Shown here one piece after another: positions 8,830-20,289 of a DNA stretch of 23,527 nt. The first letter of the stretch is position 1. Every line of letters starts with the position of its first letter. Under the pieces are notes generated by a model. That model was not told where the DNA came from, did not search any database, and saw nothing but the letters and a program-made list of their open reading frames with translations. A program made the translations under genes and the position numbers. Source of the stretch: a virus; IMG/VR virus record IMGVR_UViG_3300045738_001353, positions 1-23,527 of that record. One strand, given 5' to 3'.

Positions 8830-9882
8830 TTATGCGCCGGTTCCTTTGATGTTATCGATAGCCCCTAAACCCTTCGGGTTTTTGCACATCAAGCTATAGA
8901 TAGTTTTGGCGTAGCCGCGAGGCCCGCCACCTTCGTCGTCCAGAGTGACCGCGTGCAACGGCTCCATGTATTGAAGCTGCAACAAGGACAGGTCGAGAAT
9001 CAACCCGGCCTCGGTATTGAACGTGCTTGTTCCCCTGCGATCCAGGAACACCGACGGGATGATATTGACCCGACCAAACGAGGAGTTGAATATTTTCACC
9101 TCCAGGTTGATGGTCTTTTTGGTTATATCATCATTCAGCGTATAACGCTGGGTGTTTGTAGTACCCTCGATCCGCGTGAAGTTGTCGATCACCTCGACCG
9201 CTTCAGGCCCGAACACACCCAAGTAGGTTTTCTTGGCCGAATGAGTCTCAAACAACGACTGCAACACACCGTTAAGTTGTGTTTCAGTCATGTCCGGCGA
9301 ACCTGTCCCGGCCGCGTCTATATCCTGCTCCGCTGGCGTTAGGTATTCCGTCGGAACATTGTCTGGAATCGTGCGATTTTCCAACACCTCGTTACCGAGT
9401 TCCGTCCGCCCGCTGGATGTCCACTTGAACAGTCCACGGGTTTTCCAGGCGTCAGTAGCGTTGCCGGTCTGGCGTTCCTCGTTCGAGCAGATCACACTCT
9501 CAATGTCGCGCTTCATTTCACGAAGCGTTTTCATTTTAGCGTAATCCAATTCATTGGACACCGCTGCGGTATCCACCAACATTTGAACATCCGTCACGCC
9601 AAAATCGCGTGTGGCAATCTGGATATTGTTGCCAAAACGCTGACGCTTGGTTGCTTTGTTAGAAAACGAGTTTATGTCCCTGCCTTCGGGTTGCCCCTGT
9701 ATGCTTGGAACGGCCAACTCATCTGCCAGAACCTCGGTGTAAGTACCCCTTGGCCCTGGCCCTTTACTCATCGCTGAAACCACAGGTGTCTGTTCCGGCT
9801 CCAGGATTGTCAGGATGTCCCTTAAATCCTCGCGGTTGCCACCAGTAGTCCCAGGACTAGCATAACTATTTGCTGCTGCCAT
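8830..9882 (-). CDS. Major capsid protein (SU10 / DUF5309-like)
   Basis: A 350-residue protein. The N-terminal segment NREDLRDILTILEPEQTPVV (residues about 16-35) and the following RGTYTEVLADELAVP are like the SU10 major-capsid family (DUF5309), HK97-fold shell proteins of several podo- and siphoviruses. The C-terminal half (LNGVLQSLFETHSAKKTYLG; KIFNSSFGRVNIIPSVFLDR) has the long strand pattern expected of the A and P domains. It lies 18 bases downstream of the scaffold gene, and AGGAAAG precedes the ATG. Length is normal for the family. The assignment is made by eye from motif and synteny; no alternative fits better. Confidence 0.8.
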   Translation of the reverse strand: MAAANSYASPGTTGGNREDLRDILTILEPEQTPVVSAMSKGPGPRGTYTEVLADELAVPSIQGQPEGRDINSFSNKATKRQRFGNNIQIATRDFGVTDVQMLVDTAAVSNELDYAKMKTLREMKRDIESVICSNEERQTGNATDAWKTRGLFKWTSSGRTELGNEVLENRTIPDNVPTEYLTPAEQDIDAAGTGSPDMTETQLNGVLQSLFETHSAKKTYLGVFGPEAVEVIDNFTRIEGTTNTQRYTLNDDITKKTINLEVKIFNSSFGRVNIIPSVFLDRRGTSTFNTEAGLILDLSLLQLQYMEPLHAVTLDDEGGGPRGYAKTIYSLMCKNPKGLGAIDNIKGTGA

Positions 9883-9900: not shown

Positions 9901-10986
9901 TTATGCCGCACTTGCGGTGCGACGGGCTTTGAGCAGTTCCATTACCGCATCGGCGCTACCGCCGGAATCGTCCACCCACTTTTCCGCATCAACCACGCTG
10001 GCGCTGGCTCGGCTGCTGGCAGCCGCCAGAGGCGGTGCGCTGGCCGGGCTGGCCACCCTGGTCGGCTCGGTGGGTTTCGCTACCTTCTTGGCCTTTGGTT
10101 TAGGTGCAGAAGCATTCAACGCCCCGTTGTAAGCCTGTAATCCCATGTGAAACACGCCCACCAACTGCTTAAAGTTGGGGAACCGCTTCAATTCCGGCAT
10201 CTCCCGCAGAATATCCTGATATTCCCCGTAGACAGCGCTGGAGGACTTGCCCCAATCAGGAAAATGCTGACCGGCCAACGAATCCATTTGTGAATTGTTT
10301 TCCAGCCACTTCTCCCGTGAGGGGATGTGTTCCTCCAGCATATCGTCAGAGTATTTCAAGATGTTCTCTACTTGCTGCGAGTCGTAGTCCTGAGTCGATC
10401 CGTCAGGGAAATCAAATTCTCCCCCCTCTGGATTCCGAGTGGCCCAGCGCCGCCAATCACGGCATTGCTTGGCCTTCTCTTTTAAGTCCCGCTTGCTCAT
10501 CACGTCCGCCAGCGGATCGCTGGCCATGAGCCGATCGGTTCCCGACTTGTCCAACTGCTCTTGCAGCTTGCGGTTTTCAGCCTGGGACTCGCCCAGCCGT
10601 TCCTCGACATCCTGCCGAGATTCCTCGGCGCGTTTGCGTTGGGCGGTGAGTTTGCCTATCCGTTTGTTGACTGACCCCTGCGTCCTCTCATCCAGCCCGG
10701 CGGATTCCTCGGCTTCATCAGCGTCTTGCGCTTCAGCTTCATCGGTTTCCTCCTCGGCGGGTTGATCCTCTGGCCCTTCCGGTGACTCAACCTCTGGGGT
10801 CGATTCCGTTTTGGGTTCTTCCGTTGCGCCCGCGTCGGTCTGCTCTTGTGTTACCTCGGCGGGTTCATCTTGCTGGGCTTTCTCTCGTTTCTCTTGCAAC
10901 AATTCCCCAAGCCCCTCAAAGGAGATGTTGTCCGCGTCACTTGTGGCCGACGCTTGGCCTACTGGTAGTTCTGCAACTTCACTCAT
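9901..10986 (-). CDS. Scaffolding-type protein
   Basis: A 361-residue protein, very acidic in its first third (residues about 35-100, Glu/Asp/Pro/Thr-rich low complexity). A clear coiled coil follows (about 105-150: RIGKLTAQRKRAEESRQDVE, RKLQEQLDKSG), then a helical central region and an Ala/Pro/Lys-rich linker before a short C-terminal domain. This acidic, helical composition directly upstream of the major capsid gene is the usual signature of a procapsid scaffold. GAGGA lies about nine bases before the ATG. No protease active-site motif is visible, so a protease fusion is unlikely. It is the first gene after the terminator and 10-bp repeats. Confidence 0.75.
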   Translation of the reverse strand: MSEVAELPVGQASATSDADNISFEGLGELLQEKREKAQQDEPAEVTQEQTDAGATEEPKTESTPEVESPEGPEDQPAEEETDEAEAQDADEAEESAGLDERTQGSVNKRIGKLTAQRKRAEESRQDVEERLGESQAENRKLQEQLDKSGTDRLMASDPLADVMSKRDLKEKAKQCRDWRRWATRNPEGGEFDFPDGSTQDYDSQQVENILKYSDDMLEEHIPSREKWLENNSQMDSLAGQHFPDWGKSSSAVYGEYQDILREMPELKRFPNFKQLVGVFHMGLQAYNGALNASAPKPKAKKVAKPTEPTRVASPASAPPLAAASSRASASVVDAEKWVDDSGGSADAVMELLKARRTASAA

Positions 10987-11095: not shown

Positions 11096-11130
11096 GTACC
11101 TTAAGTACCCTTAAGTACCCTTAAGTACCC
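11096..11130. repeat. Tandem 10-bp repeat, candidate operator
   Basis: Three exact copies of TTAAGTACCC (11101-11130) preceded by a partial copy (GTACC, 11096-11100). The 10-bp period is one helical turn, so a protein could bind all copies on one DNA face. It sits in the only sizeable non-coding gap of the late region, just upstream of the terminator and scaffold gene in the direction of transcription. A regulator site or anti-termination site is plausible. No promoter-like hexamers are clear. Confidence 0.6.
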
Positions 11131-11133
11131 AAA

Positions 11134-11397
11134 TTAGGTAACGTCATCTCTGCTTTCTCCTCCTCTCAAGATGTGTTCCAGGTGGTTTTCCAGGCTCAAA
11201 AGGGCGCTGATGCTGCCCAGGTTGTGCGCGACCAGCCCCGGCTGATCGGCCATAGTCGGGTTGGAGGTGTAGACGATCTGCTCATCCCTCAAGTCACTAA
11301 CGAGCGCCAGCACCGCGTTAAAGCGCGGATCACCCATGAGCGTGCGTAAGTCCTCGTCCCTGGCAACTCTGTCCACCTTGTATTCGTTGATACTCAT
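11134..11397 (-). CDS. Hypothetical phage protein
   Basis: An 87-residue protein of unknown function. It appears mostly helical with a charged N-terminus (MSINEYKVDRVARDEDLRTL) and an amphipathic centre (FNAVLALVSDLRDEQ). The C-terminal part (GLVAHNLGSISALLSLENHL) is hydrophobic but probably too interrupted to be a membrane segment. The ATG shares ATGA with the stop of the upstream zinc-ribbon gene. It is the last gene before the terminator at 11040. Similar-sized helical proteins occur near capsid genes in many phages, but no specific role can be assigned. Confidence 0.55.
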   Translation of the reverse strand: MSINEYKVDRVARDEDLRTLMGDPRFNAVLALVSDLRDEQIVYTSNPTMADQPGLVAHNLGSISALLSLENHLEHILRGGESRDDVT

Positions 11398-11962: not shown

Positions 11963-12693
11963 CCTCCTAGTTCCTCGATTGTTTGTCTAAGCCCCTTGTT
12001 AATATCACACTCCTCCTCCCAGGCTATCTTATACACAACCTGGTGGTCGTGGGTTGTTAAATACTCGATCCTGCTCGCCTGCGAGCGAACCTTCGCCTTC
12101 AACGTCAAGATTCGATCCTCCAGGGAATGTGACAGCCCGATTTTATTCTCCAGCAACTCGTTCCTACATTCCCGTGCCATCACTTTGCGGACGAGTTCAT
12201 CATAATCACCTTGAAGATCACTCAACTTCATCTTGACCTGCCGCGTAGCCTCCCTCGCCCGATCCAGCGCCCCCCAGTTTCGATCCACCTTTGAAAGCTC
12301 ATTGCGGGCCTCGCGGCGCTGCGTCGTCCTCTTTTTCAGTTCCTCCCTTAACTGTTCCCTTTCCGCAGCCCACTTCTCTTTTTCCTCCACCATCTCTCGA
12401 TACTTCCTTTCCCAATGCCGTGCGTCCCGGTTCTTTTTATCCTCCCACCGGCCGCCTTCTCGTTTTTCTGGAACTACAACGCCTCGCCGGGCGGTGCTGG
12501 CAGCACCTCTCAAACCGTTGACGATGTGGTCGTTCACCTTTTCCATTTCATACGCCTTGCCGTCGCCCGCCAACGCCACCCCCATGTGCATGGCGGCACA
12601 TTCAAAACAAAAGTTTCCATCGAGCAAATCCTGGCCCTCTCTCATAGCGTCGGCCCCGCATCCCTCACAAGAAGATAGCGAACACGAGTTCAC
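11959..12693 (-). CDS. Zinc-ribbon and coiled-coil protein next to terminase
   Basis: A 244-residue protein with a GTG start sharing its G with the TAG stop of the large terminase (TAGTG). The N-terminus has Cys at 4, 9, 12, 29 and 32 (CEGCGADAMRE; FCFECAAMH), consistent with a small zinc ribbon. Residues about 80-220 are almost continuously charged and helical (REMVEEKEKWAAEREQLREE and similar), a long coiled coil. The portal gene is expected at this place in most tailed phages, but this protein has neither portal length nor motifs. A DNA-binding packaging accessory or an internal virion protein is conceivable; I do not recognise the family. Confidence 0.6.
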   Translation of the reverse strand: MNSCSLSSCEGCGADAMREGQDLLDGNFCFECAAMHMGVALAGDGKAYEMEKVNDHIVNGLRGAASTARRGVVVPEKREGGRWEDKKNRDARHWERKYREMVEEKEKWAAEREQLREELKKRTTQRREARNELSKVDRNWGALDRAREATRQVKMKLSDLQGDYDELVRKVMARECRNELLENKIGLSHSLEDRILTLKAKVRSQASRIEYLTTHDHQVVYKIAWEEECDINKGLRQTIEELGG

Positions 12694-14351
12694 TACCCAA
12701 ATCTTGACGGCGCGGTGAACCCGCCCGTGGCCATCATGTTCATCTCGTCCACATAATAAATGCCGCGCTTGAACAAGTACCGATCTGGGTCGATGCAGTC
12801 CTTTAGCGCCCCCTTCAAGCCGTCCAGGCCGGTATATTCCGCGTAGGCATAGATGCTCTGCTCACAATCGCTGCTGATAAAAAACTTCGGATGGTTCATG
12901 GCGCTCACCTCTGCGGTTTCCTCATAATCAAACATATCGTTGATGACCGTGATCCCGTCCTCAATGTCGCCCCCCGGCCCGGCGTGCCATATAACACTCT
13001 CACCGATCACGTTCCCATCGGCGTCCCGCTGTTCCTCGTCCATCATAGAGATGATGCTCTGGCCCTGCTTGAGATTGGGAACCTCCGCACCCCCGCCCCT
13101 GGGGTCTATAACGCGCTCAAAGATTTCCTCATCGCCCTCCAACTTCTTGAGCAACTTCTTATAGGAGAGAATGGACATCCCCAGCGGCGTCTGCGCCGGG
13201 CCTGGCTTGCCATCCGGCTTGTCGCTTGGAAACGCCCACTCGCCGTAGGTTTTGCGATCCGGCCACTCCCGGTATAGAAAGACACGATCCAGGTCATCTA
13301 TGATATACCATTTGATGAACCAGTTTTTTGTCCCGCCAGGATCACACGAACAGTAGCGTGTTCCCTTGGTGGGAACGTCCTTCGGCTTGACCACATGGAC
13401 GTTCTCGTTGAATCGCGGGAACGCCTTGCCCTCCAGGCGCTCGGCCCAGCCGTAGGCGCGGATCTTAATTTCCTCGGTGGTCTTGCCGTCGAGCATCTTG
13501 ACGATGTTTTCGTAACCACCAAACGGGTTCCACAAGCTGTGAAAACAGATAATGGCCGCGCTGCGACTGCGAGCCTCCAGGATATAGGGCATCTCGCCCG
13601 GCTTGCAGCCTGGAACATGGATGTTGTCCTGGTCTAGCAACTCGGCCGGGCGACTCTCGACCACGCGGGAGCCAGCCAGATATTCCTTGACCGTCATGGT
13701 ATAGCCCCTGACCGGCGTGAAGGTGATGATGAGTTTTCCGCTGCGCGTCACGATGCGGTAGCGCAACGTCTTAACGAGTTCGTAGCCGATCAACTCGTCG
13801 GCCCAGATCATATCAAGTTCGCCACCCTCAAACACTTTCTCGTCCATGCTATAGTTTAGGAAGCGAGTCCTGGATGAATTTGGCAGGATGAAAACCTGGT
13901 CGGCGAATCCCGCCTTGTCCGTCCACCGGACGTTGGTCGTCTGGCCCTGCTTGCCGATGTTGCGCCATTGCGGCGGCAGATAGCGGCGCACCACCGGCTG
14001 CTGCATTTCTATGGAGGAGGGAAGTGTCGTGTGCAGACACCAGGTATTCGTATATTCATCGCAGGCCATCTTGTTGGCCACGGTGCGAGCGGCGTACTCG
14101 GTCTTGCCGCTCCTGTTACCGCCCAGGATCAGCAACTCGTCGTACTGTTCCAGGAGCCGGTCGGCGTCCGCCCACGGGTCAAGTTTGACGCCGTACTCCA
14201 GCGGATCGTCCTTGGCCAGTTGAATGACGCGCTCGCGCTTCTGGATTTCATGGAGCAGCGCCTCGCTCCCGCGCTGTTCAGCCAGCGCCAACATTTCTTC
14301 CTTGGTATATTCTGCTATGCCGGGATAAGGCGTCTGTTGGAATTCACTCAT
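12693..14351 (-). CDS. terL: Terminase large subunit (packaging ATPase/nuclease)
   Basis: A 552-residue protein. The Walker A motif GGNRSGKT is at 77-84 after LLIL, and the Walker B-like LDMIWADEL at 179-187 has the acidic pair needed for ATP hydrolysis. The C-terminal RNase H-like nuclease domain begins near 333 with YCSCDPGGTKNW (Asp 337 a probable metal ligand). These are the hallmarks of TerL, which docks on the portal, pumps DNA into the procapsid and cuts it. The length is normal. It overlaps the small-subunit gene by eight bases. The portal partner is not encoded in the window. Confidence 0.92.
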   Translation of the reverse strand: MSEFQQTPYPGIAEYTKEEMLALAEQRGSEALLHEIQKRERVIQLAKDDPLEYGVKLDPWADADRLLEQYDELLILGGNRSGKTEYAARTVANKMACDEYTNTWCLHTTLPSSIEMQQPVVRRYLPPQWRNIGKQGQTTNVRWTDKAGFADQVFILPNSSRTRFLNYSMDEKVFEGGELDMIWADELIGYELVKTLRYRIVTRSGKLIITFTPVRGYTMTVKEYLAGSRVVESRPAELLDQDNIHVPGCKPGEMPYILEARSRSAAIICFHSLWNPFGGYENIVKMLDGKTTEEIKIRAYGWAERLEGKAFPRFNENVHVVKPKDVPTKGTRYCSCDPGGTKNWFIKWYIIDDLDRVFLYREWPDRKTYGEWAFPSDKPDGKPGPAQTPLGMSILSYKKLLKKLEGDEEIFERVIDPRGGGAEVPNLKQGQSIISMMDEEQRDADGNVIGESVIWHAGPGGDIEDGITVINDMFDYEETAEVSAMNHPKFFISSDCEQSIYAYAEYTGLDGLKGALKDCIDPDRYLFKRGIYYVDEMNMMATGGFTAPSRFG

Positions 14352-15087: not shown

Positions 15088-16353
15088 TGGTCGCTCTGTC
15101 TTTCTGGTTCTCTCTCAACATATGGCTCGCTCGAAGGGAGTGGTTCTCTCTGCTTTACTGGCTCGCTCAATCAATATGGTTCTCACAGGTATTATGACTC
15201 GCTCTAAGGGAATGGTTCTCTCCCTGTGCGTGGCTCGCTCTGGGTTCTTGGTTCTCTCTCAACATATGGCTCGCTCTGCGATCGTGGTTCTCTCGGTGAG
15301 CGTGGCTCGCTCCAGAAGGATGGTTCTCTCTGGCATTATGGCTCGCTCGAGTGATGTGGTTCTCTCCAAGATTATGGCTCGCTCTCGGATGATGGTTCTC
15401 TCCAAGGGCTTGGCTCGTTCGTACTTCTTGGTTCTCTCAGGGTGCATGACTCGCTCGGCGATCATGGTTCTCTCAAGTGTGTTGGCTCGCTCATGCAAAA
15501 TGGTTCTCTCTGATTAGCTGGCTCGCTCTATAGTGTTGGTTCTCTCAAACGTTATGGCTCGCTCTGGGATGGTGGTTCTCTCTGATTAGCTGGCTCGCTC
15601 TATAGTTGTTGGTTCTCTCAAACGTTATGGCTCGCTCTGTGATGGTGGTTCTCTCCTTGAGCTTGGCTCGTTCGGACCTCTTGGTTCTCTCCGGGTGCAT
15701 GACTCGCTCGGCGATCATGGTTCTCTCAAGTGTGTTGGCTCGCTCATGCAAAATGGTTCTCTCTGATTGGATGGCTCGCTTCTGCCTTCTGGTTCTCTCA
15801 AGACCTTTGGCTCGCTCCTTATCTGTGGTTCTCTCTAATTTTCTGGCTCGCTCAGGGTTCATGGTTCTCTCTGAATATATGGCTCGCTCCTTATCTGTGG
15901 TTCTCTCTAATTTTCTGGCTCGCTCAGGGTTCTTGGTTCTCTCTCAACATTTGGCTCGCTCTGCTATCTTGGTTCTCTCGGCTGGTGTGGCTCGCTCCCT
16001 GACTCTGGTTCTCTCATCCATCGTGGCTCGCTCTACGGTCATGGTTCTCTCAACCCGAGTTGGCTCGCTCTCGTTTCATGGTTCTCTCAAATTCCTCGGC
16101 TCGCTCCTTGCTTATGGTTCTCTCGGGTGTTTTGGCTCGCTCATAGTGCGTGGTTCTCTCTGACACGTTGGCTCGCTCACCAGTCATGGTTCTCTCGTAC
16201 TACTTGGCTCGCTCCGACTCATTGGTTCTCTCGGGTATTTTGGCTCGCTCAAGGGCGACGGTTCTCTCGGCAATTATGGCTCGCTCTCGATTCTTGGTTC
16301 TCTCAAAGGGCTTGGCTCGCTCAGGAATAATGGTTCTCTCTCCTTTTATGGCT
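15088..16353. repeat. TIGR-like array: alternating 10-nt repeats with 8-nt spacers, 36-nt period
   Basis: On the plus strand two repeats alternate without exception: type A TGGCTCGCTC and type B TGGTTCTCTC, each followed by an 8-nt variable spacer (10+8+10+8 = 36). I count 35 type B repeats (first 15105, last 16331), 34 full type A repeats (first 15123, last 16313), and degenerate A copies at both ends (15088-15096 and 16349-16353), with 70 spacers. Two spacers are 9 nt (15601-15609, 16052-16060). Variant repeats are few: TGACTCGCTC at 15195, 15447 and 15700; TGGCTCGTTC at 15411 and 15664; single changes at 15177, 15772, 16097 and 16259. The array touches the stop of the tas-like gene. A 36-nt unit with two repeats and two spacers is the design of TIGR arrays, processed into 36-nt dual-spacer guides. 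Transcription on the minus strand, behind tas, is inferred. Confidence 0.88.
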
Positions 16354-17142
16354 TTAAGCGACCGCCACCTTATGCGCGTGTCCCAATATCCCGACGGGAT
16401 AAGGCAGAGGCGGTTCTTTACCGAAATGATTCCTATAAGCCGTCTCATGCCAATGAGACAAAAACAGCTTTACCGCATAACGACTCGCCCTGGCCTTGAT
16501 GTGGCCCGGTGGCAGTTTGCCTGTGGAGTAATGCTTCCACGCCTCGGTCGTTTTTTTAACTCTGGCCGCGCCCTCCTTTGCCTGGGCAGCGAACGCGCCC
16601 GCATCGTTTCTTTGATCCTCCAGCACCCTTCGACTAGCGTAGATCGCACCGTAAATATCCTTCGGGCGAGTTTGTTGCTTGATGAAGCTCTCCCCTATTT
16701 TCCAACAAAGGCATTTCAGCTTCGCGTTCCAGGGCCTCTTTGTTTTTTTCTCCCATTTACGGGTCGGATCAAGCCCTGCAAAGGCCCAGATATGACCCAC
16801 CGTGGGCGCTTTCTCGATGTCGATGTGAGAAAGCAAACCGGAAGCTAACACCGGCCCTATGCCGCAAATCGAGAGCGACCATTGGCCGGTCGACTGCCCT
16901 TTTGCGTATCTGCCGAGGGCCAACTTGATCTTGCCCTCCAACTCCTTGTTCACTTCTCCAATGTACTCAAGTAGGGAGTGAGGCTCCCCGCTGTCCAACG
17001 TACTACGAACCTGGGCGTTCGCCCTGATTCGTTCGTCTTGAATCTGGTAGTATGTGTCTACCAGGAATCGCGCCTGATCCACCGACATAAACTGCGCCGA
17101 TGCGATCAAGTCCTTGTTTATTCTTAACCATGTTTCTTTCAT
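16354..17142 (-). CDS. tas: Tas protein, nuclease-less (TasA-like), IS110/Nop-related RNA-guided protein
   Basis: A 262-residue protein. Residues about 17-80 are a long helical, probably coiled-coil region. GIGPVLASGLLSHID (94-108) and FAGLDP (121-126) are the helix-hairpin-helix signature of the IS110/IS116 transposase C-terminal domain (Transposase_20). A second half follows with KLKCLCWKIGESFI (141-154), IYASRR (167-172) and GHIKARASRYAVKLFLSHWH (213-232). The IS110 N-terminal DEDD nuclease domain is absent, and there is no HNH or RuvC. No inverted repeats or insertion-sequence ends flank it. The gene abuts the alternating-repeat array, matching TIGR-Tas loci, where Tas binds 36-nt guides to find DNA. 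It is expected to bind rather than cut. A 46-bp AT-rich gap upstream may hold its own promoter. The alternative is a domesticated transposase fragment, which the array makes unlikely. Confidence 0.85.
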   Translation of the reverse strand: MKETWLRINKDLIASAQFMSVDQARFLVDTYYQIQDERIRANAQVRSTLDSGEPHSLLEYIGEVNKELEGKIKLALGRYAKGQSTGQWSLSICGIGPVLASGLLSHIDIEKAPTVGHIWAFAGLDPTRKWEKKTKRPWNAKLKCLCWKIGESFIKQQTRPKDIYGAIYASRRVLEDQRNDAGAFAAQAKEGAARVKKTTEAWKHYSTGKLPPGHIKARASRYAVKLFLSHWHETAYRNHFGKEPPLPYPVGILGHAHKVAVA

Positions 17143-17188
17143 TTTTTTATTTAGTTACTAACCCGAACAAAATTCTCATGTTACATAA

Positions 17189-17811: not shown

Positions 17812-18067
17812 TTTTTTTCTTTCTGTTTTTTGGCGGAGGTGGAATTTCCGCCCAAAAGTCAACGTCCTTAACATTGATGTAGCTCGGCTCTTGATCTACG
17901 CCGTTGTTGAAGATCATAAACAGGTCGAGGCAAAGTGAACCAACCCACACCAGGATCGAATCCGTATTATCCTCTTGAAGAATTTCCATGATGAATACTT
18001 CCTTGTGTTTCTCTGGCAACCGCTCACTCGTTGGTATCCATTTCCACTCGGCGTTTTTTTCGGTCAT
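17798..18067 (-). CDS. DUF551-family protein
   Basis: An 89-residue protein. WKWIPTSERLPEKHKEVFI near the N-terminus and DVDFWAEIPPPP near the C-terminus are the two conserved ends of the DUF551 family, small proteins frequent in phage early regions whose function is unknown. The start chosen is the ATG at 18065-18067, which shares ATGA with the stop of the helicase gene; a longer TTG frame begins at 18079. The tail after the conserved domain is Lys-rich. It belongs to the replication operon and is probably co-translated with the helicase. Confidence 0.75.
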   Translation of the reverse strand: MTEKNAEWKWIPTSERLPEKHKEVFIMEILQEDNTDSILVWVGSLCLDLFMIFNNGVDQEPSYINVKDVDFWAEIPPPPKNRKKKNEMA

Positions 18068-19503
18068 ATTTTGCCCCAATCACCGTCTTTTATGATTTGT
18101 TCCTCCTCGTCCTGCGCTTCCTTGTTTTCAAAGTCATCGGACACAAAGGTCGCGCACCATCTCTCGAAGTCGAAATGAACGACGCCGGTTGGGCCGCTGC
18201 GCTGCTTGGCGATAATCAAATCGGTTTTTTTGGTGTAATATTCCTTCGACCCTGGGCGCGGCGGGTTCGGGTCTTTCTCCTTGCTCACAATCTCATGGAG
18301 TAGCCCGACAAAATCGGCGTCCTGCTCGATCTGGCCGGATTCGCGGAGATCGGCGAGGTTCGGCGCGTCGTACTTGCTCTTGGCCGAGTTGCGGTTGAGT
18401 TGAGCCAGCGCAAGCACCGGCACGTCCAACTCCTTGGCCATCGCCTTGAGTCCCTTGCTGATGTCGGCCACCTCGTCCTGGCGACTGAAGTAGCGTTTTT
18501 TATCCAGGCCAGTTGAGAGTTGAAGGTAGTCCACCACGATCAACTCTATCCCGTGAAGCAGTTTCACCTGGCGGGCCTTGCTCCGCACTTGCTCGATCCC
18601 CAGGCCGGGCCGCTCGTCCACCCAGAGTGGGATGCCCTCAAGCTCCTTCGCCTTCGCTAACAAATTGGGGATGTCCTTGTCATCGACGTAGCCGGTGCGA
18701 AACTTAACCATGTTGGATTTGGTCTGACTGAACAGCACGCGGCTGCCCAGTTCGCGGGCGCTCATTTCCATGCTGAACACCATGACCGGCGAGGGCGGGT
18801 TCCTTATGACTTGGTTCACGGCAATGTTCATCCCTATCACCGTCTTGCCGGAGCCAGGCCGCCCTCCAATCACGATCAGATCGCCCCCGACCAGGCCGCC
18901 CATTTTTCTGTCCAGAAACTTATAGCCTGTGGGCAAGCCTAGTAACTGCGTCTCGCCCCGGCTATAGGCGTTGACCAAATTCAAGGTTGGCTCGAACTCG
19001 GTTGGGAGGCGGATCAGCTTGCTCGATGTCTCGGCGTTTATCGCCATGAGTTGACCCTCGGCTTCTTCGAGCAGCCGTTTCGTTTTGCCACTTTGTGACC
19101 CCAATTTTTCGTACAGTTCGGTCAAAAACCTACCCGCTTTGCGGCGCAACATCGCGTCCCTGGCCGCCGTGAAATAATACGGCATATTTTCGGCGCTCGG
19201 CACGCTATCCTGCAGGACGGTCAATAACCCAATCCAGCCTTCGGGCGGAGTGTCTCCGTATTCGCCCTTCTTGAGCAGCATCGACAGTTTCAATAAATCC
19301 GGCTCTTTGCCGTCGGAAATCACATCGACCAACGCCATCCAAACGGCCCTGTGGTGGGGGTGAGAGAACACCTCCACCGCTTCCGGGCCTAATTCATCGA
19401 AGATTTCTGACACCTTCGTTACGCAATCCAAAAGGCAACATCCCAGGAGGCCGCGCTCGGCTTCCTCGTCCACAACGGTTTCCAGTATTACTTTTCCATT
19501 CAT
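18064..19503 (-). CDS. Replicative DNA helicase, DnaB type
   Basis: A 479-residue protein with the two-domain DnaB layout. The N-terminal helical domain (about 1-110; EEAERGLLGCCLLD) resembles the DnaB N-domain that binds loader and primase, followed by a linker helix near 115-160. The RecA-like ATPase core has GRPGSGKT (Walker A, 214-221), MVFSMEMSARELGSR (motif H2, about 241-255), LIVVDYLQLS (Walker B, 321-330), VLALAQLNR and LRESGQIEQDADFV (about 376-390). It unwinds DNA at the phage fork. It overlaps the initiator gene by four bases (ATGA), so the initiator is the probable loader. No primase gene is recognised nearby. Very secure identification. Confidence 0.92.
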   Translation of the reverse strand: MNGKVILETVVDEEAERGLLGCCLLDCVTKVSEIFDELGPEAVEVFSHPHHRAVWMALVDVISDGKEPDLLKLSMLLKKGEYGDTPPEGWIGLLTVLQDSVPSAENMPYYFTAARDAMLRRKAGRFLTELYEKLGSQSGKTKRLLEEAEGQLMAINAETSSKLIRLPTEFEPTLNLVNAYSRGETQLLGLPTGYKFLDRKMGGLVGGDLIVIGGRPGSGKTVIGMNIAVNQVIRNPPSPVMVFSMEMSARELGSRVLFSQTKSNMVKFRTGYVDDKDIPNLLAKAKELEGIPLWVDERPGLGIEQVRSKARQVKLLHGIELIVVDYLQLSTGLDKKRYFSRQDEVADISKGLKAMAKELDVPVLALAQLNRNSAKSKYDAPNLADLRESGQIEQDADFVGLLHEIVSKEKDPNPPRPGSKEYYTKKTDLIIAKQRSGPTGVVHFDFERWCATFVSDDFENKEAQDEEEQIIKDGDWGKI

Positions 19504-20090
19504 TTTATTAGGTTTTCAAGTTGAGCATCCAATTTTTTCCTTTTATCGAGCAAACTCCACCAATCAGCACGCTCTGATGAGTCCTCATCCGCTTCTGGCG
19601 TTGCGCCGGGATCGCCAGGGTGGTTTTGCATACGCCTCCAAATATGTTTTTGGAGTGACTCAATAGGATAAACGTCCTTGCTAGAAAGTGTGTCCGGCTC
19701 CGTTATATTTCCGTTATTACTGTTTTCTTTATAGGGGCCTGCCAACTTGGCAGGATTAACTGCCAACTTTGTTACCAACTTGGCAGGATTAACTGCCAAC
19801 TTTGTTACCAACTTGGCAGCTATTTGGAACTTGTTAACATCGTCCTGGATCAGAAGCCCCTGTTCCACCAAACATCTAATTTTTCTAAATAGTGTACGCT
19901 CTGAAAGCCCGGTCATTTGCATGAGAGTGTGGCGTTCGGCCCAAACTTTGCCCGTTGTGGTAAGGAAACACATGGCAACCAGGAGCAACTTGGCGCTTGG
20001 GTCGCTTTTCCAAACATCTTCGCCGTCCTTCTTTGGAACCTTTGATTTAACAGGCTGATAGAACGCTAGTTTTACGAGTTGTAGGCTCAT
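19500..20090 (-). CDS. Replication initiator/helicase-loader-like protein (lambda O-like organisation)
   Basis: A 196-residue protein using the ATG at 20088-20090; a TTG frame extending to 20165 is less convincing. Residues about 30-95 form a winged-helix domain (SAKLLLVAMCFLTTTGKVWA; LMQMTGLSERTLFRKIRCLV; EQGLLIQ), the type found in phage replication proteins that bind origin DNA. A 33-bp DNA repeat then encodes two copies of an 11-residue unit (KLVTKLAVNPA). The C-terminal part is polar, Trp-containing and possibly disordered, a plausible helicase-interaction region. It lies immediately before the DnaB gene. The arrangement of an initiator gene with repeats inside it followed by an AT-rich stretch is like lambda O; direct homology is not claimed. 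Confidence 0.65.
   Translation of the reverse strand: MSLQLVKLAFYQPVKSKVPKKDGEDVWKSDPSAKLLLVAMCFLTTTGKVWAERHTLMQMTGLSERTLFRKIRCLVEQGLLIQDDVNKFQIAAKLVTKLAVNPAKLVTKLAVNPAKLAGPYKENSNNGNITEPDTLSSKDVYPIESLQKHIWRRMQNHPGDPGATPEADEDSSERADWWSLLDKRKKLDAQLENLIK
19739..19819. repeat. Iteron cluster, candidate replication origin
   Basis: Two exact 33-bp units (19742-19774 and 19775-19807) and the first 12 bases of a third (19808-19819). Each unit contains TTGGCAG GATTAA CTGCCAA, a perfect 7-bp dyad with a 6-base centre. An extra CTGCCAA at 19739-19745 gives the palindrome CCTGCCAACTTGGCAGG (19738-19754). In all there are five TTGGCAG half-sites in alternating orientation. An AT-rich stretch follows in the gene's direction (about 19695-19733). 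Repeats plus AT-rich DNA inside the initiator gene match the layout of lambda ori. Confidence 0.65.
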
Positions 20091-20289
20091 GCTGTAGCCA
20101 GTACGGTCGTATTTGTAAGCCCTTGGATAATCTGAACTCCCAGAGCCGTCCGCGAGCGTCCACAAGGAAAACTTTGATGCGGCCGCCCTGACGCATCTCC
20201 GCCCAATACCAACGCTGCCGCTTTCGCGGGTGATCGATTAGGCGCTGTAACCGCCTTCGTTGTATCCTTGTCCACTCTACCTTCACCAT
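20047..20289 (-). CDS. Hypothetical small basic protein
   Basis: An 80-residue protein. The start at ATG 20287-20289 overlaps the stop of the HTH gene (ATGGTGA), which is why it is preferred over a frame extending to 20328. The N-terminus is very basic (KVEWTRIQRRRLQRLIDHPR, KRQRWYWAE), followed by a small beta-like region (GGRIKVFLVDARGRLWEFRL). Its end overlaps the initiator start by 44 bases in another frame. The basic, aromatic-rich composition suggests nucleic-acid contact, but no family is recognised. Confidence 0.5.
   Translation of the reverse strand: MVKVEWTRIQRRRLQRLIDHPRKRQRWYWAEMRQGGRIKVFLVDARGRLWEFRLSKGLQIRPYWLQHEPTTRKTSVLSAC

What the first reader, a model, noticed from the sequence alone, without database searches (positions are those of the whole stretch)
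16354..17142. Tas-like protein is an IS110 C-terminal domain without the DEDD catalytic half
Automatic annotation would call this a transposase. The frame has no N-terminal DEDD domain, no flanking insertion-sequence ends and an intact, conserved-looking second half. A 46-bp AT-rich gap, one of the few untranslated gaps in this operon, precedes it. It is a good case for the evolutionary link between RNA-guided IS110 transposases and snoRNP-like proteins.
Basis: partly seen in the sequence, partly recalled or inferred. Interest (0 to 1): 0.7.

Follow-up and report, generated by a model that had tools for sequence, protein, structure and literature searches.

The report
Phage TIGR-TasA RNA-guided DNA-binding system
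The gene is not a broken transposase but the protein half of a recently described RNA-guided DNA-binding system (TIGR-TasA), sitting in a phage genome directly in front of its own array of 35 guide-RNA units; it is a clear new example of a known system whose natural targets are still unknown.

Summary
The ORF at 16354-17142 (-) is real, intact and 262 aa long, with no hidden N-terminal domain. It is a TasA protein (solo Nop domain) of the TIGR-Tas systems described in 2025, not a truncated IS110 transposase. NCBIfam NF052498 (TIGR-Tas) scores 193.8 bits (cut-off 100); the IS110 model scores 20.7 (cut-off 140). The AlphaFold model matches solved TasH and TasR (Z 18-20) well above IS110 recombinases (Z 13). 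Directly behind its stop codon, on the same strand, lies a dual-repeat TIGR array, 15091-16355: 35 units, edge repeat GAGCGAGCCA, loop repeat GAGAGAACCA, 8-nt spacers. All 44 viral relatives pass the TIGR-Tas cut-off, none shows a DEDD domain in front, and about 40 carry such arrays. Between phages, edge-A-loop-B units are inherited together (8 shared units against 0 for the alternative pairing), which fits the published 36-nt tigRNA. Most likely mechanism: TasA dimers use split 16-nt guides to bind both DNA strands without cutting. Targets of this array were not found. In one related cultured host, one of six guides matches exactly once, inside another integrated phage-like element (0.02-0.065 expected by chance): a lead, not proof. 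New member of a known kind.

The parts
16354..17142 (-). tasA: solo Nop-domain Tas protein, 262 aa (coiled coil about residues 21-81, C-terminal Nop RNA-binding domain)
   Evidence: NF052498 193.8 bits, cut-off 100; AlphaFold2 pLDDT 89; VIA Z 19.6 to TasH 21kl, 17.9 to TasR 9mty, 13.1 to IS621 8wt6
15091..16355 (-). TIGR dual-repeat array, 35 units (edge GAGCGAGCCA, 8-nt spacer A, loop GAGAGAACCA, 8-nt spacer B), same strand as tasA and directly downstream
   Evidence: 70 alternating repeats parsed; Tandem Repeats Finder period 36; reading of the sequence
16349..16355 (-). 5'-truncated first edge repeat (AAAGCCA); it overlaps the tasA stop codon TAA (16354-16356)
   Evidence: read from sequence
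15091..15096 (-). 3'-truncated last edge repeat (GAGCGA)
   Evidence: read from sequence
15303..15889 (-). 253-bp internal duplication in the array (7 units), with later point changes in repeated spacers
   Evidence: Tandem Repeats Finder period 253, 82% match; near-identical units
17143..17188 (.). 46-bp AT-rich (76%) gap upstream of tasA, possible leader or promoter region; no sigma-70-like site found in it

Best explanation
A phage-borne TIGR-TasA system. tasA and the array are transcribed together (inferred: same strand, array starts at the tasA stop codon). The precursor is cut in the edge repeats, probably by a host RNase, into 36-nt tigRNAs (edge half, spacer A, loop, spacer B, edge half); this is published for other TasA, TasR and TasH systems and inferred here. 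A TasA dimer holds one tigRNA by the matching box motifs of the edge and loop repeats. Spacers A and B pair with opposite strands of one 16-bp target that reads 5'-A-revcomp(B)-3' on one strand (geometry deduced from the published cut sites). Having no nuclease, TasA most likely acts as an RNA-guided roadblock or DNA-bending protein on target genes, most plausibly of competing mobile elements or the host (purpose inferred, weakly supported). Confidence by layer: identity 0.97, RNA-guided DNA binding without cleavage 0.8, silencing of rival elements 0.4.
For: Family: NF052498 193.8 bits; all 44 viral relatives over its cut-off; sequence matches to solved TasR and TasH; structure matches. No nuclease: ORF starts at the coiled coil, same in the relatives. 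Array: 70 alternating repeats; at least 35 of 44 relatives have 7 or more alternating repeats on the tas strand, none on the other strand with the same parser; L032 and L037-L040 have 34-37-nt versions. Edge and loop box C change together across loci: CCA/CCA, ACA/ACA, CCG/CCG. Units shared between phages: 284 near-identical pairs against 11-22 when A and B are shuffled. Outside the close group, 8 shared A-loop-B units and 0 shared B-edge-A units, so the inherited unit equals the published tigRNA. Target lead: exact gapless match of one KBS 96 guide to the chromosome, once, in an integrated element with integrase, HTH_3, two HTH_17, capsid and prohead protease.
Against: No target was found for the window's own array: no match of 14/16 or better in its own 23.5 kb and no signal clearly above shuffled pairings in 1.16 Mb of related phage DNA. 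The KBS 96 hit is a single event, with 0.065 exact hits expected for six guides with gaps 0-2 (0.022 gapless), and it was not repeated in a complete Methanosarcinales genome or in 0.99 Mb of Halomonas NO4. No intrinsic terminator was found after the array on its strand. Expression, processing and binding were not tested here.
Confidence: 0.8

Rival explanations
1. A truncated IS110 transposase: the C-terminal half left after loss of the DEDD domain, next to an unrelated repeat array.
For: Pfam PF02371 just over cut-off; PHROG label 'transposase'; IS110 recombinases are the next best fold (Z 13).
Against: IS110 model 20.7 bits against cut-off 140, TIGR-Tas 193.8 against 100; no full-length version among 44 viral relatives, which start at about the same place; arrays co-occur; Tas and IS110 separate at 0.998.
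Confidence: 0.01
2. TIGR-TasA that helps the phage itself (regulation of its own genes, integration or packaging) by bending or marking its own DNA, rather than acting on rivals.
For: TasR bends its target by nearly 180 degrees, and Faure et al. suggest help to phage integrases and note ParB-like neighbours (PMC12045711); ParB-like genes follow the array in the L012/L014 group; in the window the array lies two genes before the terminase large subunit.
Against: No self match of 14/16 or better in the window; no self-target signal in the related contigs, though several are fragments; neighbours differ from phage to phage.
Confidence: 0.2
3. TIGR-TasA that represses host chromosomal genes during infection (counter-defence or host take-over).
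For: Published speculation; hosts of most of these phages are unknown, so host targets would not have been seen here.
Against: Exact-match scans of six KBS 96 guides in its 6.7 Mb host gave one hit, in another mobile element rather than a host gene; no excess in a complete Methanosarcinales genome.
Confidence: 0.25

Closest known systems
TIGR-TasA of Flavonifractor plautii (FpTIGR), Faure et al. 2025, PMC12045711
   Same: Solo Nop-domain protein beside an array of two alternating short repeats, 36-nt unit, array bounded by truncated edge repeats
   Different: Spacers here are mostly 8 nt (9 nt in FpTIGR); 35 units here against 5-15 in most published arrays; direct sequence comparison with FpTasA was not done
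TIGR-TasH of Salicola phage CGphi29 (SpTIGR; PDB 21kl and 9w04 series)
   Same: Nop domain (26% identity over 137 aa; Z 19.6), phage location, 8-nt spacers (16 nt in all)
   Different: TasH has an N-terminal HNH nuclease and cuts DNA; the window protein has none
TIGR-TasR of a Thermoproteota archaeon (PDB 9mty)
   Same: Nop domain (E 5e-13; Z 17.9); box C 'CCA' at the end of both repeats
   Different: TasR has a RuvC nuclease and 9-nt spacers, and its repeats start with UG; here they start with GA(G)
IS110-family RNA-guided transposases (IS621, ISCro4)
   Same: Same C-terminal fold (Z 13)
   Different: No DEDD domain, far below the IS110 model cut-off, single-copy gene in a phage operon with a guide array
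Box C/D snoRNP proteins Nop5/Nop56/58 and Prp31
   Same: Nop-domain fold and box C/D-like guide motifs, according to the literature (PMC12045711)
   Different: No Pfam Nop (PF01798) match to the window protein; direct structural comparison not made

Membership tests
TIGR-Tas (TasA subtype) | Tas-family Nop protein | tested here: met
   NF052498 193.8 bits, cut-off 100; solved Tas structures are the top matches
TIGR-Tas (TasA subtype) | Solo Nop domain, no HNH or RuvC domain | tested here: met
   262 aa, open frame 266 aa; no nuclease domain in Pfam; VIA alignment starts at residue 17-19, at the coiled coil
TIGR-Tas (TasA subtype) | Adjacent array of two alternating 8-12-nt repeats with short variable spacers, unit about 36 nt | tested here: met
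   Edge GAGCGAGCCA, loop GAGAGAACCA, 8-nt spacers, 35 units
TIGR-Tas (TasA subtype) | Matching box C/D motifs in edge and loop repeats that covary between loci | tested here: met
   GAG....CCA in both repeats here; ACA/ACA and CCG/CCG in relatives
TIGR-Tas (TasA subtype) | Array begins and ends with a truncated edge repeat | tested here: met
   AAAGCCA at the start, GAGCGA at the end, both of edge type
TIGR-Tas (TasA subtype) | Predicted rho-independent terminator after the array (typical, not defining) | tested here: inconclusive
   No candidate on the array strand just downstream with a simple scan
TIGR-Tas (TasA subtype) | Array processed into 36-nt tigRNAs bound by the protein; RNA-guided DNA binding | not testable with these tools
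   Inheritance of edge-A-loop-B units agrees with it, but no RNA or binding data exist
IS110 transposase | N-terminal DEDD (RuvC-like) catalytic domain | tested here: not met
IS110 transposase | Score over the IS110 family model cut-off | tested here: not met
   20.7 bits, cut-off 140
IS110 transposase | C-terminal catalytic serine | not tested
   Not examined residue by residue
IS110 transposase | Bridge RNA in the element's flank | not tested
   Rfam found no RNA family in the window, which does not exclude a bridge RNA
Box C/D snoRNP protein (Nop5) | Pfam Nop (PF01798) sequence match | tested here: not met
   No PF01798 match at E up to 1
Box C/D snoRNP protein (Nop5) | Fibrillarin and L7Ae partners, K-turn in the guide | not tested
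   None noticed in the window, but not searched for

The most novel reading that the evidence does not exclude
TIGR-TasA systems of temperate phages silence rival integrated elements: the guides of a prophage bind early genes of another prophage or satellite in the same cell and block their transcription without cutting. In Acidobacteriaceae KBS 96, guide 2 of the prophage's six matches exactly, with the predicted geometry and no gap, once in the chromosome, near the start of an HTH_17 (excisionase-like) gene beside the repressor and integrase of a second phage-like element; guide 5 matches 14/16, with both mismatches at its outer end, in the next gene of that element.
Probability: 0.25. Interest if true: 0.75.

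Novelty: new member of a known kind. Interest (0 to 1): 0.38.

Why it matters
TIGR-Tas was described only in 2025, and the natural targets and the purpose of nuclease-free TasA are stated open questions. This locus is a clean TasA example with an unusually long array. The comparison supplies two things that can be tested: evolutionary evidence that edge-A-loop-B is the inherited guide unit, and one concrete candidate target, another phage-like element, in a cultured relative's host. For annotation: families such as PHROG 4285 still carry the label 'transposase' for these proteins.

Tried and rejected
Truncated IS110: rejected. Self-targeting: no match of 14/16 or better in the window outside the array. 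Targeting of related phages: 1.16 Mb scanned with all 655 distinct guides of 37 arrays, A+revcomp(B), gaps 0-2, against shuffled pairings; exact hits in 3 guides against about 0.65 expected and a weak excess at 15/16; the opposite geometry shows none; judged inconclusive. An exact match of an L028 guide to the ParB-like gene behind the arrays of L014, L015 and L017 was noted but is one event. The KBS 96 guide is itself not rare in viral DNA (94 contigs, none with a context like the KBS 96 site), so its uniqueness in the 6.7 Mb host carries the weight. No TasA in the plasmid collection. No Nop5 or Prp31 chain is among the listed fold matches; that list does not exclude the fold. No TasR or Nop5 sequence was in the tree.

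Full report
What was checked. The ORF at 16354-17142 (-) exists as described: ATG start, 262 aa, with only four further open codons upstream, so no N-terminal domain is hidden in frame. The 46-bp gap before it is 76% AT against 45% for the window. The record is an IMG/VR virus fragment of 23,527 bp with tailed-phage genes: DnaB-like helicase 18064-19503, terminase large subunit 12693-14351, SU10-type major capsid protein 8830-9882.

What the protein is. NCBIfam of 2026 has a model for this family: NF052498 'TIGR-Tas system RNA-guided endonuclease', 193.8 bits with a cut-off of 100; the IS110 model scores 20.7 with a cut-off of 140. The model's name says endonuclease, but this protein has no nuclease domain. 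By sequence, the best Protein Data Bank matches are TasR (9mty, E 5e-13) and TasH (21kl, E 6e-9). An AlphaFold2 model (pLDDT 89) matches TasH at Z 19.6, TasR at 17.9 and the IS110 recombinases ISCro4 and IS621 at 13.2 and 13.1; unrelated helical proteins follow at 10 and below. The alignments begin at residues 17-19, where the coiled coil starts. This is the architecture Faure et al. (2025, PMC12045711) call TasA: a Nop domain alone.

The array. On the same strand, beginning in the tasA stop codon, lies an array of two alternating 10-nt repeats, GAGCGAGCCA (edge) and GAGAGAACCA (loop), separated by 8-nt spacers, with a few 9-nt exceptions: 70 repeats, 35 units, 15091-16355. [quoted passage not shown] A 253-bp internal duplication explains part of the length. 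Most published arrays have 5-15 units, but relatives found here also reach about 40. No intrinsic terminator was found on the array strand.

Relatives. One scan of viral contigs gave 44 relatives at 34-64% identity. All pass the TIGR-Tas cut-off, and the matched regions begin at about the same place with no DEDD domain in front. With locus-specific repeat consensuses, at least 35 of 44 have seven or more alternating repeats on the tas strand; the same parser on the other strand gives one chain of six in all loci. L032 and L037-L040 have 34-37-nt versions. Across loci the end of both repeats changes together (CCA/CCA, ACA/ACA, CCG/CCG), the covariation reported for box C. In a tree of the Nop region, Tas proteins (including TasH) separate from five full-length IS110 proteins with 0.998 support, and the window pairs with L002 at 0.905. 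Sixteen relatives in bacterial and archaeal genomes include prophages of Halomonas sp. NO4 and Acidobacteriaceae KBS 96.

An evolutionary test of the guide unit. Arrays of different phages share guide units: 284 pairs of units differ at three or fewer of 16 positions, against 11-22 when A and B are shuffled. The window shares one unit with L002, whose TasA is 63% identical (AAGGTCTT/GAAGGCAG against TAGGTCTT/GAAGGCAG). Outside the closely related L012-L020 group there are eight shared units with both spacers conserved when A and B are joined across the loop repeat, and none when B and the next A are joined across the edge repeat. The inherited unit is therefore edge-A-loop-B, the same as the published 36-nt tigRNA. 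This is an inference from sequence, independent of the biochemistry.

How it most likely works. From the published TasR work, spacers A and B pair with opposite strands of one site; the reported 8-nt 3' overhangs fit only a site that reads 5'-A-revcomp(B)-3' on one strand (deduction). Applied here, each guide specifies 16 bp. With no nuclease, binding without cleavage is expected: a roadblock to transcription or replication, or a DNA bend. Shown here: protein family, array anatomy, co-occurrence, unit inheritance. Inferred: co-transcription, processing, binding, purpose.

Search for targets. For the window's array nothing was found: no match of 14/16 or better in its own 23.5 kb, and a scan of 655 guides of 37 arrays against 1.16 Mb of own and related phage DNA gave at best a weak excess over shuffled pairings (exact: 3 guides against about 0.65). 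In KBS 96, whose prophage carries a six-unit array, five guides have no exact site in the 6.7 Mb chromosome and one has exactly one, gapless, at 6329962-6329977. A third-order Markov model expects 0.065 exact hits for the six guides with gaps 0-2, and 0.022 gapless. The site lies near the start of an 86-aa HTH_17 gene, beside a second HTH_17 gene and a divergent HTH_3 repressor, in an integrated element with a phage integrase, capsid and prohead protease. A second guide has a gapless 14/16 match in the next gene of that element, both mismatches at the outer end of spacer A; a hand estimate gives about 0.03 such gapless matches for six guides in 9.3 kb. This fits silencing of a rival element, but it is one host, found after several negative searches; a complete Methanosarcinales genome and 0.99 Mb of Halomonas NO4 gave no comparable hit. 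It should be treated as a lead.

Verdict. The locus is a new member of a known kind, TIGR-TasA, with a long and well-formed array.

Noticed in passing
G002:C1:6329962-6329977 (L483:1501-1516), Acidobacteriaceae KBS 96, KB906767.1: Exact gapless site for prophage tigRNA 2 (TAAAAGCA/TTCGATTC) near the start of an HTH_17 gene of a second integrated phage-like element; a second guide matches 14/16 in the next gene. Candidate natural target of a TIGR-TasA system.
   Followed up: partly
L014:3683-3699 (also L015, L017): A tigRNA of another phage (L028, TGATGTCC/CTTACAGC) matches exactly, with a 1-bp gap, inside the ParB-like gene that follows the TIGR array in these phages.
   Followed up: partly
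L012-L020 arrays: Group of related phages, several with three sub-arrays and many shared but slightly varied guide units; useful for studying how TIGR spacers turn over without an adaptation module.
   Followed up: partly
window 15303-15889: 253-bp duplication in the array; the duplicated spacers have since diverged by point changes (TGCACCCG/AGAGGTCC against TGCACCCT/AGAAGTAC).
   Followed up: partly
window 19742-19819: Perfect 33-bp tandem repeat (2.4 copies) inside a replication-initiation-like ORF (19500-20165); possible origin iterons.
   Followed up: no
window 11099-11130: Perfect 10-bp tandem repeat CCTTAAGTAC (3.2 copies) in the gap between ORFs 9901-10986 and 11134-11397.
   Followed up: no
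PHROG 4285: The PHROGs family matching this TasA (E 4e-43) is labelled 'transposase, integration and excision', probably a mislabel for Tas proteins.
   Followed up: no
L061:10840-11420, Methanosarcinales Met33H chromosome: Solo-Nop Tas gene with a UG...CCA dual-repeat array (about 13 units, 9-nt spacers) in a complete archaeal genome; no matching target above shuffled pairings in that genome.
   Followed up: partly
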